DNA of 64,000 bases from positions 69,010 to 133,009 of the forward strand of contig MU277745.1 in assembly GCA_022385805.1 (NCBI GenBank), written 5' to 3'. The notes beneath the pieces were generated by a model. It was not told the origin of the DNA, made no database searches, and worked only from the letters and a program-made list of their open reading frames with translations. This document shows, in pieces, positions 28,353 through 64,000 of this stretch. Each line of letters starts with the position of its first letter. Positions within the stretch are counted from its first letter, which is position 1. The translations under genes and the position numbers were made by a program. Source of the stretch: Pilatotrama ljubarskyi. Its lineage: Eukaryota > Basidiomycota > Agaricomycetes > Polyporales > Polyporaceae.

Positions 28353-30303
28353 CTACACCTGCAAGAAATCTGTCCGCAACGAGTCCGCGTCGCCCTTGTG
28401 TTTCTGCCGGCCCCACGCGATCGGTGACGCGCTCAGCAGCGGGCGCGTGACGGACGACGCGCCCGTGCCCGTCGGTGTCCCCGCGCCCTCTCTCCCACCA
28501 CTTCCACCACCTCCACCACCTCCACCTGCAGCGGAAGCCATGCGCATCTCCGCTCGACTGCTCGCGAGGCTCCCGTTCCCCTCCCCGGCTCGATGCGCGT
28601 GCGCGTGCGTATGGGGGAGCGACGCGTACGGCGCGCTGCGCTGGGACGGGTCCCGCGGGACGCCCGGCAGGTCCTTCAGGATCCCGCTTCCAGTGCTCGG
28701 CGAGAACGCGCCCGCCCCGCTCTTGTGGGACGACCCGCCGAACGTCGAAGGCGCGCCGCCGAGAGACGGGTTCGCGGAGGACTGGCCGTATCGGAAGACG
28801 CGCTCGCGCGCGCGGGAGCGGTCGTATACGCGCCTGAGGAGGAGGTAGAACGCGCCGAGGACGAGGGCGAGGCCGATGAGGGCGCCGAACGTCGCTGCGA
28901 GGATGGTGGGCGTCTTCGAGGGGGATGGTGGGGGTGTGGAAGTGCTGTGAACGTGGGTGGGTTGGGTTTAGATTGAGTACGGTGATGTCGACCGAGGCAG
29001 AGCGACGTACCTCCGGAAGGGCGTGAGGCTTGCTGTGGAGGAGAGCGTGCTCGTTTGCGAGGACCTGCACGGAGGACGTGAGCGGGGATGTTCGGGACCG
29101 ACACGTAGCGCGGGAAGAGAGGAGTGCCGAGGCCGGCGGCATCCCCGAGGCGGGAGAAGCATTCACAAGTGATGAAGTGGAGATGGAAAGAAGATGGATG
29201 GGTGGGGCAGGGGCAAGTGAGATCATCACGGATCGTGTATCAATGCCACCTCTGCATCCTCTCGAGTCTCGAGAGCGCTCTGAGGGTCTTCGTGCTGTCG
29301 CGTCTGTATGGAAGCGAAAGTGGCTCGGCACGGTGGTTAAATTGGACGGTGCTCACGAGCGAGGGGTGAACTGCGCAGACGGCCGTGGAGGGGGATCAGG
29401 AACGAGACTCACCCAGTAAGCCACGGTGGGGACGACGTGACGGTTCCGATACTACTCGTCCACTGACTGGATTACAGAGTCCGCGAAGATGAGCGCACGT
29501 CCCGCAATCAGTGCCTGGGACGCACCTGTCGGGGGCAGACGCAAAGGTGATGTAGTCGATATCGAGCCACCGTCCCTGGATGCCGTCCCCGCTGAGGACG
29601 GCGGTGAGTTTGACGAGGTGTGTGGCGGACTCGCTGCCGTTCCCAAAGGCGTGCGCGAAGAGTTGTTGGTGAAAGGCGGTCTGGGGCTGGGCGGCGTCGA
29701 GGGTGAGGACGGTGGAGTCGAACTGGACTTGGAACTTGGCCTGTGCTGCGGGGGTGAGCGGGGAGGGGAGGAGGGCATAGAGAGGACGTACGTGACCGGG
29801 GCCCTTGGAGCCATAGAGAGCAAAGGCGAAGCCGTTGAACTGAAAGGTCATGGTGGCGCCGTCGGCCTGGGCGGCATGGTAGGTGCGGTCGAAGAAGTGG
29901 TCGAGGTCTGGGTCAGAGGGGAGCTGAGTTGCCCAGGCTGGAGAGAAAGCGAGGGTGGGGTCAGTGTCGTCGAGGGTGAAGTTTGGCATAGGGAGGGACG
30001 ATGGTGAGCAAGGAAGGGCAGCAGGGGGAGGAAGAGAGGAGGCTAGGAGCGGAGAGGGCTGTGGCGGGAGGGCGGGGGAGTGTGTGGGCGCATGCAGGTC
30101 GCTTCCGGCGGAGGAGTAGGCGGGATGGGAGAACAGAGAGCAGCACACGAAGAGCAGCGGGACGAGGCCAAGCACGGACGCGACTGTCCTGCGGCTGATT
30201 GATGATCATCCCGCCCGACCCATCTCTGATCCCGCCCACCTGCTCGCTGCGCTGCAGATCCTCGCCGACGTTCTCGACAGGGGGCACAAGGGGCGGTTGC
30301 CAT
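28353..30303 (-). CDS. Single-pass membrane protein with lectin-like ectodomain
   Basis: Proposed exons 30303-30240, 30183-29526, 29466-29413, 29064-29011 and 28944-28353; all phases close, 473 aa. The 5' exon is the least certain. It was chosen because it joins a basic start (MATAPCAPCRERRRGSA) to a hydrophobic VASVLGLVPLLFVCC that has no ATG of its own; the next in-frame ATG is at 29989. The ectodomain starts NFTLDDTDPTLAFSPAW and contains MTFQFNGFAFALYGSKGPGH and GRWLDIDYITF, a pattern common in mushroom membrane proteins. A Ser/Thr stalk (SSQTSTLSSTASLTPF) leads to the membrane helix TILAATFGALIGLALVLGAF, followed by RRVYDRSRARER and a Ser/Gly-rich cytosolic tail ending FLQV. Probably a cell-surface sensor or adhesion protein. 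The 348-nt intron 29065-29412 is unusually long. Confidence 0.65.
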
Positions 30304-55955: not shown

Positions 55956-56458
55956 TGTAAGCCGCACAAAGAGAGTTCTTCAGTCTGTGAGCAAAAGACT
56001 ATATTGCATAGAGTAAGTACCTGTAAGCCGCACAAAGAGAGTCTTCAAGTACTTGGTAAGTGAACCATATATGTAAGCATAGATGTATAGTACTTACTCT
56101 TCAGTCTGTGAGCGAAAGACTGGAGAGCAGGGGCAGAGAATGTCCTCCTTATATACAAGTTTAGAGGACGCATGAGTAGGCGAAGAAAGGAGGGCATGTG
56201 ACCTAGCATACGATGAGTAAGACGATGGTGCGAGGATGGTGTAAGTATCGCACCATCAACTAGAACTATCTAGACGAGTCTATAGGGATCCGGAACAGTG
56301 TAGAACGCACTGGAGAAGTCCAGAAGTGTCCGGATGGGAAGTATCGTACAAACAAAGAAATCTATATACAGTAAGTAGGAACGTCCATGCTGTGAAGCAC
56401 AGCCACTGTGTGACCTCCGGACCGCGTATGGCCAGTACGCAATTCTGGAAGTTCAACA
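55956..56458 (-). repeat. Copia LTR (3' LTR relative to the element)
   Basis: On the minus strand the pol frame is followed by a purine run (AAATGAGTGGGAG, 56459-56471) and then TGTTGAAC, the usual polypurine-tract/LTR junction. Read on plus, the unit starts TGTAAGCCGC and ends GTTCAACA, so it has TG...CA ends. The start could be 55956 or 56022, because a 22-bp segment (CTGTAAGCCGCACAAAGAGA plus GT) is repeated 66 bp apart. A minus-strand TATATAAGG at 56147-56155 is a good LTR promoter. A second repeated motif, CTTCAGTCTGTGAGC, lies at about 55978 and 56099. No second LTR is present in the window. Confidence 0.65.
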
Positions 56459-56469
56459 CTCCCACTCAT

Positions 56470-57440
56470 TTAAGCTGTCGGATCCACCAAACCAATGCCT
56501 TTCCTGAAGCGATCCACAATAGCAAGCGGAATGTTCTTGGTTAGAGCATCGGCAAGTTGATTCTCAGAAGCCACAAAAAATATCTTGACGCTACCTCGCT
56601 CGATCTCCTCACGAATGTAGTGGTAGCGGATATCTATGTGCTTCGTACGGCGATCGACAACGGGGTTGACAGACAAGAATATAGACCCTTGATTGTCCAA
56701 GCACATAGGCGTAGGACGGGTCATGTCATCTCCGAGTTCTTCGCCAAACGTCCGCAGCCATGCCAACTGACGACAAGTATCTGAGGCAGCCTTGTACTCC
56801 GCTTCAGTCGAGGAAAGCGAAATGGTTGGCTGACGCCTCGATGCCCATGATATAGCACCACCTGCCATCAAAAAGACGAAGCCAGCGGTCGAATGCCGGT
56901 TGTCGCGGTTCTCACCCCAGTCAGAGTCCGAATAGGACACCAGACCGTCGTTGGACGCCCCTCAGTATCGCAAGCGAAGATGCTTAGTCCCTTGTAGATA
57001 GCGTAGGACATACTTCGCATAATGCCAATGCAGATCCGACGGATTGGCATTATACTTAGACAACCGCGTGACGGCAAAGTCAATGTCAGGACGCGTCCCA
57101 AGAGTTGCATAGAGAAGACTGCCGATCAAACTCTGGTAGCGCTGACGAAAGGAATCGGAAGCGGGCTGGTCCGTTGCTTTGAACTCAGCACCAGCAGGAA
57201 GGGGATTGCAGTCAGCCATGTCGAAGCGTTCGAGGACAGACTGGATGTACTCTTCCTGGTCAATGTCGATTGTACGAGTAGTCCGATCACGTGTGATACG
57301 AAGACCAAGGAAGCGCTTTACAGCACCCAAGTTAGTCATTTTGTACTGCTTCTTCAAGGCATCCTTAGTATCCTTGATATGGCACCAGTTACCGCCGAGG
57401 AGTAGTAGATCGTCGACATAGAGTACGACAATCGTAACGG
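56470..57440 (-). mobile_element. Truncated Ty1/copia retrotransposon (RT end and RNase H)
   Basis: Minus strand, reading from 57440 down. The fragment starts inside reverse transcriptase just before the catalytic LYVDDLLLLGG motif (YVDD at 57409-57420) and continues MKKQYKMTNLGAVKRFLGLR and RYQSLIGSLLYATLGTRPDI, then ALHWHYAKYVLRYLQGTKHL-like residues. One in-frame TGA near 56959 interrupts it. RNase H follows: YSDSDWGENRDNRHSTAGFV, SLSSTEAEYKAASDTCRQLA, KHIDIRYHYIREEI and NQLADALTKNIP. Gag, protease, integrase and most of RT are missing, so it is a dead 5'-truncated copy. The low divergence of the remaining frame suggests recent loss. Confidence 0.92.
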
Positions 57441-57447
57441 AATCCCC

Positions 57448-57527
57448 TTAGGGTTATGAGACCTTCGCTCAGCTGCCCAGGCCTCGTTTAAACCCTAGCC
57501 TTAACCCTAGCATTGCATTCTAGGGTT
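57448..57527. repeat. Degenerate interstitial telomere-like motifs
   Basis: TTAGGGTTA at 57448-57456, AAACCCTA at 57490-57497, TTAACCCTAG at 57501-57510 and TAGGGTT at 57521-57527, in both orientations within 80 bp. TTAGGG is the usual fungal telomere unit. The block begins exactly where the copia reading frame stops. Confidence 0.5.
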
Positions 57528-57604
57528 CCCAATCGGTGCCAGGTGACCGCAAGCGGAACCCCAACCCTGGGCGATCTGCCGGCGCTAACTGGGGCTGTGT
57601 GGCG

Positions 57605-57704
57605 GTGTGCGTAGTCGACGCACACATCACGTCGACGCCGGGTAAGGCACCAGAGCGTTGCCGCATGAGGTGCGCCGCAGCAGAGTGTGCGTAGGTGACG
57701 CACA
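57605..57704. repeat. Two related hairpins 80 bp apart
   Basis: GTGTGCG-tagtcga-CGCACAC at 57605-57625 and GTGTGCGTAGGTGACGCACA at 57685-57704. Both can fold into a short stem with the same outer sequence. The function is unknown; they may be part of a mobile element end. Confidence 0.5.
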
Positions 57705-58212
57705 TGAGGAGGAGGAGCGCGCTGACCGTCAGCATGCGAGAAAGATGCATAAATGATGCACCCCTGTGGCGCGCAACAAGCTCTGCGCACCATTTGAGGC
57801 CGAAGTTGTCACTACGGACGCGTGCGCGCACGATGCACATCACCATGTGGCCACATATCCAGATTGCAGCTATGGGTGACTAAAAAGGAGAACGGTGAGA
57901 ATGGGGCGGAGGTGATCTTTGGGATGCGAGAATGCCAGATGAATTCCACAGTATTTCAATTTATTAGCGCCCATCATCCCGACATTGATGGACAAAGCCG
58001 AGCTAGGATGATGAAAATAAAGGGGGTGAATGTCTTAGAGCCATAGGGTTAGACTCAGGTTAGAGTGACCAAAATCCTCACAAAGTCGACAAGGTAAAGA
58101 CACAATTCTATAGCTTTAATCCATAGGTACCCATGGCAACCTCATTTATGTACCCTGAGTGAAAACTGACGGAGATATTTGAGTGAGAAGTTTGGGCACC
58201 TAAATGCACGAA

Positions 58213-58815
58213 CTATCTATATAATCCGAGGGATGAACGTTCATCCCTGGAGGTAAATCGGAGGTAAGGCTGTATCTCCGTCGTTTCCTGGACAACTCCC
58301 TTACCTCCAAGCATTCTATCTATATAATCCGAGGGATGAACGTTCATCCCTAGAAGGTAGGTCGGAAGGTAGGCGGAAGGTAGGCCGCAGCTCCGTCGTT
58401 TCCTGGACAACTTCCTACCTTCCAAGGGTCTATGGAAAGCCACGGTTCATGGCTACAAGATGGCGGTACTTTTGTCCAATTTCGTCCACATCTCACGGAG
58501 TTATGGGAGAAATCGCCGTGGAAGGTAGGTCCCCTATCTATATAATCTGAGGGATGAACGTTCATCCCTGGAGGTAAATCGGAGGTAAGGCTGTATCTCC
58601 GTCGTTTCCTGGACAACTCCCTTACCTCCAAGCATTCTATCTATATAATCCGAGGGATGAACGTTCATCCCTAGAAGGTAGGTCGGAAGGTAGGCGGAAG
58701 GTAGGCCGCAGCTCCGTCGTTTCCTGGACAACTTCCTACCTTCCAAGGGTCTATGGAAAGCCACGGTTCATGGCTACAAGATGGCGGTACTTTTGTCCAA
58801 TTTCGTCCACATCTC
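58213..58815 (+). repeat. Structured repeat array A1-B1-A2-B2
   Basis: A 285-bp pair of units (58213-58497) is repeated 321 bp downstream (58534-58815) with almost no change. Each pair has an A unit and a B unit. All four units start CTATCTATATAATC(C/T)GA, then a perfect 18-bp palindrome around TGAACGTTCA (58230-58247, 58333-58350, 58551-58568, 58654-58671). Next comes an inverted repeat enclosing the conserved core CTCCGTCGTTTCCTGGACAA. The arms are GGAGGTAAGG/CCTTACCTCC in A (58260-58269 with 58299-58308) and GGAAGGTAGG/CCTACCTTCC in B (58375-58384 with 58414-58423). B units carry an extra 3' segment of about 70 bp. I do not recognise the family. Confidence 0.85.
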
Positions 58816-58832
58816 TAACTGTATAAGGCTGG

Positions 58833-58848
58833 AATAATGATCATTATT
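58833..58848. repeat. 16-bp perfect palindrome
   Basis: AATAATGATCATTATT, 18 bp after the end of the repeat array. It could be a hairpin, a terminator-like structure or chance in A+T-rich DNA. Confidence 0.5.
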
Positions 58849-59730
58849 CTTGATAATAGCAAAGTCATCAATTTGTTTGCCCCATAACTTTTGAACCAAG
58901 CCATAGAATCAGATAATCAAGTTGATTTTGGATAGCAGAGATACAGAGCTATGAGGATCAGATTGTTTCATAGCCATATCAAATGTTTTGGGGAAGTTAT
59001 GGCCATTTCAATGCCGGATCAGCAGATTATCAAGTCTGATTCTTCCAGTAATTGACCTGTAGTATTTGATCCGCTGGAGATTGGCTTGAGATATCACATA
59101 CACATGTACATATAGAGCACTGCTACATATATCAAGTGGTTTTGTGGTGTTTGCATAATTTTCTGGACCGGAAGAAGGCAAACAATTCTGACATGCTGTA
59201 GGGGCTCATTTGACTGTGTCAAAAACACGTTCTGATAATAAGCTCATTGATGCACATCTATCTGAGGCTTAGAATGAGAAGTTGAGGATCTCAATATGCA
59301 CAAAATGAGCCTGCTTGTGGGAATTTTGAGTAAGTGGTTATGCAATGATATCGACATCATTATTTTAAAGTGCATTAGTACCAGTACCATGCCAGGCATT
59401 AAACTGCATAGAACAATTGATGGCTGTCATGTCAAATACTTATGGTGTCTTAAACGGGCCAGCAATATGCTCAGATCTTAGCAATGTCATACACAAATTA
59501 TACAGAGTCAGAAGTCATCATTGAATATTGTACATCATACATCATTGTCAATTATCGTACATCACCAATTGTCATCAACTATCATACATTTATCGTACAT
59601 CATATATCACCATGCAGACGCTACACATCACAGTCGAATGTCCAGTATCATCCAGTATCATACATCACAACCATATAGAATCATTACACAAATAGTCCAT
59701 ACCAAGCATATGTCCCAAAGACGCTACAGC
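58849..59730. other. A+T-rich 3' flank of the large gene
   Basis: No gene. It probably contains the 3' UTR of the minus-strand gene. Its right part holds the degenerate short repeat listed separately. Confidence 0.45.
59515..59680. repeat. Degenerate CATCATACATC-type short repeats
   Basis: Motifs such as TACATCATACATCA, TATCGTACATCA and AGTATCATACATCA recur about ten times in 165 bp, just past the stop codon of the large gene. Spacing is irregular, so it is not a clean microsatellite. Confidence 0.55.
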
Positions 59731-62700
59731 TTACTCGTCGAGCTCATCATCTCCAAAGTCATTGAAATATGGATCCTGCCTAGCTCTGATAAGCGCTACC
59801 TCCCCTTCCACCCAGGTATGAAGGCGCCGGAATGCCTCTCTTGCAGCACGTGGATTGAGAGGGAACGTCTCTCGCAACTGAGCAATGAGCGGTAGAATCT
59901 CATAAGTAGCAGATTCAATAAACGGCTCTTCTTGATGGAATGGCTGCAAGTGCATCTGCATGGCCAGTCCGCGCTCAGTGCTGGATTGCATATTCCATGC
60001 ATCCTGGTCTGGGGTAGGGAAGCCAGATGGTAGAAGGTCGGCCAAGGAGCGGGGGGTTGGGAGTGGAGCAAAAGGGCTAGAGCTGGCAGCCTGTATAGCT
60101 GATTGATTAGTTTACTTCTTATTATATTAGAATAATGCTTACATTGCCCTCAGGCTGCTGACTGCCAGTACCAGGTTGTGTGTGATCTACTTCTGGAGTG
60201 GCGGGAGCAGTAGGCTTTGCCACAGCACTGGAATGTGTGGATGCGTCATCTAAAATATTTTTTGCTTAGAGTTGGGACCACTATATAGTAGAAGCATCAC
60301 ATACCAGCCTCTGTGGAGCTTTCAGGAACCTTGGAAGCATCATCAGCAGACTTGTCGATCTCCTTGTCGCTGTTGTTGGTATCCTTGTCGCTGTCGTCGA
60401 TGACTGCCTTGCTGCGAATATTGCGCCGCTTTTCCTGCAGACCTTGACGAACTCGGCGACCCCGGAATGCGCGCTGCTTCCCCTTGCCCTTGCGTTTGAT
60501 AACCGGCTCCTCCTCATACTCGTCATCATCTTTCTCTGTCTCACCTTCATCATTACCTGCAGGCATACGCTGAGGAATGGAAAGTGTTGAGCCACCGCGT
60601 CCTCGACCATGCCTACGGCCACCACCCTTTAGTTCCTGAGGTGGTTCACTGGCTGGAACAACGCTGGCATTGCTAGCCCGATTAAGGGCATCAGCAAGCT
60701 GTTCCTCAGGAGTGATGTCCGGCTGAGAGGTGGCAGGTACGTCGACGTCCATGGAGTCGCTTGGGTCTTCAGTTACCCGGCTAACCTTACCACCCGAGAT
60801 GGTACCAGCACCAGTAGCCGCTACCGTGCGTCCAGCTTCAGAGACGCTGACAGCACGCTCCTTCCGCTTTCCCAGAGCCTTCCGTGATGGGATTGCAACG
60901 TATACGGATGTTGACTGTGGTTTAGATGCAGTGACAGGAGCTGCTGTAGAGGTCGTGGAAGTCTGAGTGGTGGGGACTGGGGGTACAGGCAATGCGTTGT
61001 GAGCTGGCTCGGTTTGGGCTGTTGAGGGTGGTTCGGCATTATCGGCTGAGGGTTCCGTGGATTTCTGGGCTAAGGAAGGAGGTGTGGGACTGGCAAAGGG
61101 CAAAGGAGATTGACGAGGGCTTGGCACTGGGGTATGGCCTACAGAGACTGGTTTGGACAAGGAAAGTGGGTGGTGGGAAGCTGAAGGCTGAGAGGAATCT
61201 GTCACGGCACAATTAGAACATTATTTTGAAAGAATTATTAGTTATCCGTCACCTTGATGAGGCTTAGTTTGTACTGCAGATTGATCTACTGACACCTTCT
61301 CAATCTGCCTCAGCCTGATCCACGGAGGAGTTCCACCAGCACGTGGGTCCTGAGTGTTGAAAACCAGCACCGTGCCTTCAGATTGTGAGGATCCACCTTT
61401 TGCAGCTGGTCCCGGTGCTTCAGCTTCGGCTTGGAGAAGTTGGGCAACATTGAAGGGAAGATGCGAGCTACTAGGGGAAGCAGGATTGACAGTAGGAATA
61501 GGCGACATGTCGAGGTTGAATAACGAGCCCTGGTTGCCAAGCTGTAGCTCCGCCACGATACGTTGCCACGCTGGGTGCTGTAAGACGTTGGCGATGGCGC
61601 GTGCGTAGTTCTTGACGGCTCTATCGGTGCTGGATGTGTTCACGTTACAGTCGACCTCAAAGCTCACCAGAGCTTTGGCGAACCGCCTCTTGGTTTGCTT
61701 CATAAGATCAGAACCAGTGTATTTTGCAACACCAGCCTTCTCTTTTGGTAACCAAAAGAACTCGTCGCCAGTGGAGGTGACGTGCTTCAAAGACTTGGGC
61801 AAGTCATTGATGAGCTCAACATGGTTGTCGATAAGTATCGCAGCAATCTGTACAATTAAAAATGTCTTTATGCGTATATGAATTAAAATGCAAATATAAC
61901 ACACATACCTTGTAAAGTCGAGTCAGGTCCTCAGGATGTGCATCCCGATATACCTGAGCGATGGTCATTTCGGCAGATGGGATTGAAGGCTTGTAGCCGG
62001 GTATCTCGGAGAGCTTGCGCTTCTCAGCAAGATGATTGAGTATCGGACCATCTGCAGTCCGCCACCATGGCAGTTTGCCCCAGATGTGTGGCTCCTGACC
62101 GGGGAAAGGACTGTTGGAGGAGAAGAGGTTTGCCCAGGAGCCTCCATAAAGCACCCATACAAGCTACAATATATTAGTCTGGTTTATGATTTAACTACCC
62201 CAATTGATACACTTACAAGTGCTGTCAGGCAGCCCATGAACTCCCACCTTCCACGGAAGTTGCTGACCATGCCACGTGCCGAAAAGTAGGCATGCCACAG
62301 AAGCTATTATGAAATTTATTAGACTTCAGGTATAAGCAATCAGAATAAGTGCTTACTGCTCCTTTATCTTCTCCACGAAGTAGCAGAGAATATTCGCCAT
62401 CAGCACGGACCGCAGCATTCTCTGATTGCAAGAGGGTAGCTAGGTAGGGGTTGGTCGGCTTCTCATTCTTCCGCAGCTTCTCGACCAGAGCTTTCATCGC
62501 TTCAATACGTTCTGCAATTGGAGCATCTGGGAGAAGCCACACGAAAACCTGGCCCCGCCTAGCCCGAGCCGCGAGAGTGTCGAGTTTGGCCATTTCATTC
62601 AAGGTAAGAGTGACTGGGGCATCATTGCGACGAATGTCGACAATGTCTGAGCAAGTCGCCCATGGTGCACCAGCAAATGGAGAAAGCTGATCGGCCGCAG

Positions 62701-63749
62701 CTTCCAGATAGCATGACAAGGGCTATATATCAAAGTCAACAATCAAATTGTGGATATTTCCCTGCATTACTTACCCAACAGCCGCTATTCCAGATAGCAG
62801 AAAGAGCAGTCTTAGGCACCGTACGACCTATCCCATATTCAGATCCACGCGCTAAAGCATGCAAGATCTTGGGATGAGAGAGCGCCTGTTCGCCTTGAAT
62901 AACCGAGTAGTCGCCTCCCAAGCAGGTTCCTACAAGGTGCTTGAAGTAATCCACAGCGTCCTTGTTGCTCTTCGCTGCAGGATTATAGGCGTCGTCGGAA
63001 CCGTAGATCTGCCGATATTCGAAGTCGAGTGTAAGAAAGAGAGCAGTCATCATTTGAGGATCTTCAAGTTTTTTGAGGTTGATGTCGACATGGTTCTGAG
63101 CCAGGATATACATAGTGATGATAGAGGAGGGAAGGATATCAAGCACAACTTCAGAATTAGGATATAAGCATACTTGGTTCAAATGACTGAAAATATACTG
63201 CTTACAGCGAGGTAAAAAAATTGCAGTCCAGAGCAGCCGAGGGGTATAGATGTTGTGAAGCCATGCCTTCTGAGGCGTCACAGGATCTTCTTTATCGATA
63301 TCCAGCATAGCGTGAATGCGATGGCCGTGCGTGAGATATGTCAAAGTGACGCCAGGGGGGGGAGACCACTCGGGAACTTCTTCAATGGTGGCAGGATCGG
63401 CAGTGTGGTGACGGAGAAGTGACTCCCAATGCTCCGTGTCCACCACGAAGAATGCAGGAAATTTCAGGCGCTGATCAGAACCGCACAGCGAAGCTTTGAG
63501 ACGGTCTGCATGGCTACCAAGGATCGGGCGCTGGTCACTGTGCGGCTTGCAATTCTTGATTGATGTGAGGTACCAACCCCGCCCAATTGCCTGAAAAAGC
63601 CTGGTCAAATTCTCCATTTTTCCTTTAGCACACTCAGCATAGAAGCGCCGAATGACAGCCTCAATGAAAGCCGTAGAACAGCCCTCATATGTAGCAGGGT
63701 TTAGTGCTTTCTCAAGAGTGATTGATTCCATGTTGGCTGGGGTAGACAT
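59731..63749 (-). CDS. Large unknown protein of the candidate element, ParB/Srx-like stretch
   Basis: Nine exons: 63749-63206, 63148-62775, 62722-62357, 62303-62217, 62163-61909, 61847-61253, 61198-60305, 60249-60143, 60090-59731. Eight GT-AG introns of 52-61 nt, all phases closed, 1193 aa: clearly a maintained gene. The N-terminal 130 residues contain KPHSDQRPILGSHADRLKAS, LKFPAFFVVD and VTLTYLTHGHRIHAMLDI. This order recalls ParB/sulfiredoxin-fold proteins (NPR...helix...strand...GxHR), but only weakly. The middle has RRGQVFVWLLPDAPIAERIE, LLWHAYFSARGMVSNFRGRW and GDEFFWLPKEKAG. The C-terminal 450 residues are Ser/Pro/Thr-rich with basic blocks (RKGKGKQRAFRGRRVRQGLQ) that look like nuclear signals, and the tail is acidic. 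Function unknown. Codon third positions are richer in A/T than in neighbours. Confidence 0.85.
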
Positions 63750-63892
63750 TGTTTGTGATAGTGTTGCTATAAGACACCATGTTATTTTATGTGATCTTTT
63801 ATGCAAAGCAAAATTTATACGAACACTTCTGTTTTAGGAAGGTAGTGGTTGCAGTTCAAGAGGTATATCTGTGGCTGTGCAGCTATCTGTGG

Positions 63893-63903
63893 CTTTATAT
63901 ATA
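63893..63903 (-). promoter_or_regulatory. TATA box of the large gene
   Basis: TATATATAAAG on the minus strand, about 145 bp before the start codon, which has good context (ACAATGTC). It sits between the gene and the right-hand structured repeat. Confidence 0.5.
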
Positions 63904-63906
63904 GTC

Positions 63907-64000
63907 CTATCTATATAATCCGACCACTGAACGTTCAGTGGCGGAGGTAAATCGGAGGTAAGGCCGTATCTCCGTCGTTTCCTGGACAATCGCCTTACCT
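63907..64000 (+). repeat. Structured repeat, copy C (cut by the window end)
   Basis: Same orientation and order as the left array: CTATCTATATAATCCGA, an 18-bp perfect palindrome CCACTGAACGTTCAGTGG (63924-63941), GGAGGTAAATC, arm GGAGGTAAGGC (63954-63964), core TCTCCGTCGTTTCCTGGACA, and the closing arm GCCTTACCT at the last base. The palindrome keeps the central TGAACGTTCA but its four outer pairs differ from the left copies. Confidence 0.85.

What the first reader, a model, noticed from the sequence alone, without database searches (positions are those of the whole stretch)
58213..64000. A candidate new mobile or selfish unit: one intact 1193-aa gene bracketed by structured repeats
Seen: nine exons with closed phases, no stop codons, lower G+C than the rest of the window, and direct repeats on both sides (A/B units left, C unit right). 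A dead copia copy lies just outside. No known transposase, recombinase, RT or helicase motif is in the protein. Inference: an element family of basidiomycetes that carries a single large protein and non-coding structured ends.
Basis: partly seen in the sequence, partly recalled or inferred. Interest (0 to 1): 0.9.

Follow-up and report, generated by a model that had tools for sequence, protein, structure and literature searches.

The report
Stacked chromosome-end elements with palindromic heads
The stretch looks like a pile-up, probably near a chromosome end of a wood-rotting fungus, of broken copies of a mobile-like element that begins with a fixed tag and a palindrome whose letters change but whose symmetry does not; the 1193-residue gene inside it has one distant relative in this genome, which sits beside a known kind of chromosome-end helicase gene.

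Summary
The sequence facts hold: a nine-exon 1193-aa gene (minus strand, 63749-59731), lower G+C, and direct repeats on both sides. The reading "one gene bracketed by its own ends" does not. Each repeat is a "head": CTATCTATATAATCCGA, an 18-20 nt palindrome, then an inverted iteron pair. 15 heads were found on 9 of 173 contigs, all pointing to the nearer contig end. Between copies the palindrome changes with full pairing (91 of 91 inner-stem cells, 13 distinct heads). Eight empty/filled comparisons show one fixed edge, always after a C. The gene has a 28%-identical paralog sharing five introns in place and phase; it lies 0.9 kb upstream of a RecQ-type, telomere-linked-helicase-like (TLH) gene. 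Both TLH-like loci found lie on head-bearing contigs. Best reading: a subtelomeric pile-up of truncated TLH-associated elements whose constant palindromic end was joined to broken chromosome ends. Subtelomeric RecQ elements are known; the structured head, array-specific iterons and companion gene did not turn up in my paper searches. Unproven: true chromosome-end location, the outer end, the mechanism, other species. About 5.5 kb beyond base 64000 seems to exist publicly but was not readable here.

The parts
56473..57447 (-). copia remnant, broken off at its inner-sequence side where a telomere-like TTAGGGTTA begins
   Evidence: RVT_2 on 56965-57447; open frames
57448..57456 (+). telomere-like TTAGGGTTA directly at the copia break
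   Evidence: sequence
57452..57972 (+). repeat X, also on C159 (90%) and at the very last base of contig C54
58014..58212 (+). LTR-like repeat (polypurine run then TGAATGTC...), also on C159, C79 and C150; cut by the first head
58213..58315 (+). head unit A: 17-nt end, palindrome 58229-58248, iteron GGAGGTAA direct and inverted
58316..58533 (+). head unit B: palindrome 58332-58351, iteron GGAAGGTAGG; begins inside unit A
58534..58636 (+). second copy of unit A (tandem duplication)
58637..58815 (+). second copy of unit B, shorter
58816..59730 (.). AT-rich single-copy stretch downstream of the gene (G+C 0.37)
59731..63749 (-). nine-exon companion gene, 1193 aa
63907..64000 (+). head unit C (runs off the window): palindrome 63924-63941, iteron GGAGGTAA

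Best explanation
The stretch is a pile-up, probably close to a chromosome end, of truncated copies of one element family. SHOWN: every copy starts with a near-invariant 17-nt end, a palindrome and an iteron-bearing hairpin; that end faces the contig interior and is joined directly to unrelated DNA (LTR, copia, gypsy, other repeats, an older head), after a C in all eight cases that could be compared with an empty site; bodies face outward; each array uses its own iteron. SHOWN nearby: on two other contigs a head is followed by a RecQ-type TLH-like gene, on one of them preceded by a companion gene of the same family as the 1193-aa protein. INFERRED: an element protein (the companion, or the zinc fingers of the TLH) binds the iterons of its own array, the helicase opens the end, and the constant palindromic end is joined to a broken or eroded chromosome end, so that new copies stack outward and later lose their outer parts. 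INFERRED: the palindrome stays symmetric while its letters change because one arm is copied from the other through a fold-back hairpin.
For: 15 heads at 0-1 mismatch on 9 contigs, control 0; 11 of 15 exact palindromes, the other four with perfect arms but a CC centre (3) or one extra central base (1). Seven inner stem pairs: 91 of 91 cells paired, all seven changed on both sides; iteron helix 92.4% paired; covariation score 0.626 against 0.194 shuffled, 0 of 500 shuffles as high; slid versions at most 0.150 (13 distinct heads, two tandem duplicates left out). Single-strand fold z -4.5 (RNA) and -4.1 (DNA). Exclusive iterons per array (iteron list chosen by eye). Eight empty/filled comparisons with one edge. 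Heads point to the nearer contig end on 9 of 9 contigs (from; coin-toss chance 0.002). Body queries hit element parts only on head-bearing contigs. TLH-like gene with OrsD, DEAD, Helicase_C on C139, partial on C159; companion paralog 0.9 kb upstream of it, 5 shared introns. Repeat X reaches the last base of C54 and the LTR-like repeat lies 444 bases from the end of C79.
Against: No complete copy and no outer end was seen. Contigs tend to break at any repeat, so their ends prove little; the C139 head is 16.7 kb from its contig end and C159 runs on for 0.8 kb of other sequence after the broken TLH. Telomere repeats (TTAGGG x3) occur only at C75 and C142. The window itself holds no TLH, and its companion gene is inverted relative to C139. 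Between head and genes on C139 lie other repeats and a run of N, so the link of head and genes there rests on the same contig, not on continuity. The outermost palindrome pair is formed in only 46.2% of cells, and the number of pair types is not above shuffles (438 of 500 as high); the structure was read from these sequences, which favours it. One genome only; mobility has not been observed.
Confidence: 0.5

Rival explanations
1. Ordinary subtelomeric repeats spread by recombination or break-induced copying between chromosome ends, without transposition; TLH and companion genes are bystanders that live in the same region.
For: Repeat X, the LTR-like repeat and a 461-base stretch at 99% identity are shared between contig-end regions; palindrome and iteron types are reshuffled between copies.
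Against: The same base-exact edge recurs at unrelated sites, including a copia gene and a gypsy-like gene; recombination alone gives no reason for one fixed edge or for matched changes in both palindrome arms.
Confidence: 0.27
2. A telomere-attached retroelement of the HeT-A or Penelope-like type: the head is the 3' end of an RNA, with two hairpins for its reverse transcriptase, primed by a chromosome end.
For: Constant inner end, one orientation and stacking are as described for Drosophila telomere elements (PMC5537684, passages); the minus strand folds into two hairpins near the end.
Against: Junctions are not in telomere repeats; the genes keep introns, although some Penelope-like copies do so too (recalled); no reverse transcriptase was seen with the TLH or companion genes, but I did not search for one systematically and runs of N remain.
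Confidence: 0.1
3. A Helitron-like rolling-circle transposon: the head read on the minus strand is a 3' end with a subterminal hairpin.
For: An 18-20 nt hairpin lies about 16 nt from the end; Helitrons have a 16-20 nt hairpin about 12 nt from the 3' end (PMC4289320, passages).
Against: The end is GATAG or GATA, not CTRR; the site is C|T or C|A, not A|T; Helitron_like_N matches lie on C44, C14, C48 and C10, none on a head contig (best candidates only); the associated helicase is RecQ/DEAD type.
Confidence: 0.05
4. One reading: the 1193-aa gene with left (A/B) and right (C) repeats moves as one element.
For: The gene does lie between like repeats and differs in G+C from the rest of the window.
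Against: Both sides carry the same end in the same orientation; the companion family was found on only 2 of 9 head contigs; the 58816-59730 flank is single-copy.
Confidence: 0.05

Closest known systems
Subtelomeric RecQ-helicase (telomere-linked helicase, TLH) elements of fungi: U. maydis UTASa/UTASb (PMC10532341), Colletotrichum higginsianum subtelomeric repeats (PMC5576322), Agaricus bisporus var. burnettii (PMC7473861), Ganoderma leucocontextum (PMC10817607); all seen as passages
   Same: RecQ-type helicase gene on repeat-bearing contigs; same orientation relative to the end (as reported for Colletotrichum); an OrsD domain (as reported for UTASb).
   Different: A base-exact head with covarying palindrome and array-specific iterons, stacking of truncated heads, and a companion gene; none of these is mentioned in the passages I saw.
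CPA element of Tolypocladium inflatum (PMC3688495, passages)
   Same: Repeated, RecQ-like element in a fungus.
   Different: Reported as dispersed over eleven scaffolds; no palindromic head or companion gene in the passages seen.
Drosophila HeT-A/TART/TAHRE and other telomere retroelements (PMC5537684, passages)
   Same: Constant end towards the chromosome, outward stacking in one orientation, outer truncation.
   Different: No reverse transcriptase seen here; genes with introns.
Helitrons of Pleurotus (PMC4289320, passages)
   Same: Subterminal palindromic hairpin near a fixed end.
   Different: End sequence, target site and helicase type differ; no Rep match on head contigs.

Membership tests
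TLH / subtelomeric RecQ element | RecQ-type helicase gene in the element | tested here: inconclusive
   Present on C139 and C159, both head contigs; absent from the window itself; continuity with a head is plain on C159 (head, array, then TLH) but broken by other repeats and N on C139.
TLH / subtelomeric RecQ element | Position next to telomere repeats | tested here: inconclusive
   Heads point to contig ends on 9 of 9 contigs, but TTAGGG x3 was found only at C75 (about 40 bases before a head) and C142.
Helitron | 3' CTRR end | tested here: not met
   15 of 15 heads end in CTATC.../...GATAG.
Helitron | Insertion between A and T | tested here: not met
   C|T or C|A in 8 of 8 comparisons.
Helitron | Subterminal hairpin | tested here: met
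Helitron | Rep-helicase protein | tested here: inconclusive
   PF14214: 5 matches in the genome, none on a head contig (best candidates only, and N runs remain).
Telomere retroelement (HeT-A type or Penelope-like) | Reverse transcriptase | not tested
   No systematic RT search around heads.
Telomere retroelement (HeT-A type or Penelope-like) | One orientation, inner end constant | tested here: met
   9 of 9 contigs.
   Same end on both sides; paralog locus on C139 not bracketed by heads in held sequence.

The most novel reading that the evidence does not exclude
A new kind of chromosome-end element: its inner end is a hairpin terminus copied by folding back, so that the palindrome drifts freely yet stays symmetric; each lineage has its own iteron read by a co-evolving protein (the companion, a new DNA-binding family); and it joins end-first to broken chromosomes rather than by cut-and-paste or reverse transcription.
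Probability: 0.2. Interest if true: 0.85.

Novelty: new variant of a known kind. Interest (0 to 1): 0.6.

Why it matters
RecQ-like helicase genes sit at chromosome ends of many fungi, and why is unsettled: in Agaricus bisporus one variety lacks them without evident telomere abnormality (PMC7473861, passages). A base-exact, structured inner end with array-specific iterons would make it testable whether such regions are mobile or selfish elements that cap broken chromosomes, and would give a sequence handle for finding them in other basidiomycetes.

Tried and rejected
Rfam over 56000-64000 at E<=1: no match. Structure prediction of P0001 with seven paralog exon rows: mean pLDDT 40, so no fold search was run. 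PDB by sequence with the two-protein alignment: one match, E=0.73, taken as chance. NCBIfam: none. Three protein searches returned only the gene's own public record; each scored only about 8000 candidates, so relatives in other species are not excluded. Head pattern in viral contigs: 3 matches, none followed by a palindrome. Two further genome sites at 2 mismatches, on C24 and C34, have no palindrome either. Dropped as an argument: that the contig ends at base 64000, because the public contig is longer. Distal halves of interrupted units were sought in the window only as short exact strings: not found beyond 58816, one unrelated match at 28670. Papers: ten searches; nine papers seen as passages, none read whole; one not held.

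Full report
WHERE IT IS. The window is C76:69010-133009 of a 33.1-Mb genome held in 173 contigs. Its 1193-aa protein matches BV20DRAFT_982769 of Pilatotrama ljubarskyi, a polypore, at 94% over the query; the species is inferred from this. The held contig ends at window base 64000, but the public contig of that protein has 138,507 bases.

THE GENE. Nine exons on the minus strand give 1193 aa without a stop. A paralog on C139 (26718-30382, 7 exons, 1118 aa) is 28% identical over the whole alignment and matches at E=2e-67 in the N-terminal part. The first five introns agree in position and phase, 5 of 5; the remaining three in the window and one in C139 do not coincide. Only these two copies were found (best candidates only). 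No Pfam, NCBIfam or PDB relative passed a threshold, and the structure model is not usable.

THE NEIGHBOUR OF THE PARALOG. 0.9 kb further on C139 starts a gene of at least 1717 aa with OrsD (E=4.6e-8), DEAD (8e-13) and Helicase_C (1e-12) matches. OrsD and RecQ-type domains are reported for subtelomeric helicase genes of Ustilago (PMC10532341, passages); for Agaricus and others only the helicase core was reported (PMC7473861, passages). The 5' part of a second such gene follows the head and array on C159 and is broken by the LTR-like repeat. Apart from two weak matches on C14 no other was listed.

THE HEADS. The repeats around the gene are copies of one end: CTATCTATATAATCCGA, a palindrome, then direct and inverted iterons. 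15 sites with 0-1 mismatch lie on 9 contigs: C76 (5), C150 (2), C162 (2), and one each on C75, C88, C91, C102, C139, C159. Palindromes are exact in 11 of 15; three have perfect arms around CC and one an extra central base. On 13 distinct heads (two tandem duplicates left out) the seven inner stem pairs are formed in 91 of 91 cells and each changes on both sides; the outermost pair is formed in 46.2% and the iteron helix in 92.4% of cells. The covariation score is 0.626 against 0.194 in shuffles (0 of 500 as high) and at most 0.150 in slid versions; the count of pair types is not raised (438 of 500 shuffles as high). Palindrome and iteron assort independently: one palindrome occurs with three iterons, and C75 and C159, 88% identical over about 850 bases, carry different palindromes. 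Each array keeps to one iteron, with 2 to 11 exact copies, on one or both strands; the window's A and B units have one each. Direct as well as inverted copies change together, which speaks for protein-binding DNA sites at least as much as for an RNA fold.

THE EDGE. Eight filled heads could be set beside an unoccupied version of the same sequence (search strings chosen by eye and ending in the C): the LTR-like repeat (C159; also C79), an A-type unit (C150), a B-type unit (C162), a repeat on C139, repeat X (window), the LTR-like repeat again (window, for C150), copia (C142, for C102) and a palindromic array (C162). In 8 of 8 the two agree up to a C, after which the head goes on with TATCT; the empty site goes on with T in 6 and A in 2 (a second reference for the A-type unit shows A instead of T). 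Only the inner flank could be checked. In the window, the sequence that should follow the interrupted units was not found again beyond them, by short exact strings.

ORIENTATION. On 9 of 9 contigs the heads point to the nearer contig end, and stacked heads share one orientation. Queries made of body sequence matched element parts on head-bearing contigs only; bases 255-811 of the C139 query are other dispersed repeats. This fits chromosome ends, but contigs also break at repeats, so it is suggestive only. TTAGGG x3 occurs at C75, about 40 bases before a head, and at C142. At window 57448 TTAGGGTTA stands where the copia reading stops, as if a broken end had been healed there (inference). Repeat X, next to it, reaches the last base of contig C54.

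MECHANISM. Shown: a base-exact constant inner end, joining to unrelated DNA after a C, outward stacking, array-specific iterons, and matched change of both palindrome arms. Inferred: joining to broken ends, loss of outer parts, the roles of TLH and companion, and hairpin-templated upkeep of the palindrome. Introns in the genes make a spliced-RNA route unlikely, not impossible. Helitron membership fails on end and target and no Rep match lies on a head contig.

NOVELTY. Subtelomeric RecQ repeats in one orientation are known (PMC5576322, passages). The head, the iterons and the companion gene did not turn up in ten searches of an open-access library that lacks most subscription journals; those searches asked for helicases, telomeres and the species, not for the head sequence. 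I file it as a new variant of a known kind.

Noticed in passing
window 64000; contig C76: The public contig of the gene is 138,507 bases, the held one 133,009 and ends exactly at the window end, so about 5.5 kb is not held.
   Followed up: partly
L030:8040-8530; L010:6700-6830: Arrays of a perfect palindrome (GAGTGCAGCAGCTGCACTC type) lie between the iteron array and the TLH-like gene on C159 and before the second head on C162.
   Followed up: partly
L043:3180-3610: Other short palindromic repeats lie upstream of the companion paralog on C139.
   Followed up: no
L060; L045:4040-4500: The end of contig C79 and the outer part of C159 are 99% identical over 461 bases, so these end regions share a duplicated stretch.
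   Followed up: partly
C139:20583-21140 (L029:7584-8140): Right after the head's body on C139 come other dispersed repeats, found also on C5, C6, C3, C2, C107, C100, C28 and C156.
   Followed up: partly
window 61198-60305: The public gene model (P0001) leaves out about 50 aa that are open and in frame in the nine-exon model.
   Followed up: no
L010:8000-9100 minus; L029:5500-6400: To my eye a SUN-domain-like gene (C162) and a MAP-kinase-like gene (C139) are the nearest host genes inside two heads; not tested.
   Followed up: no
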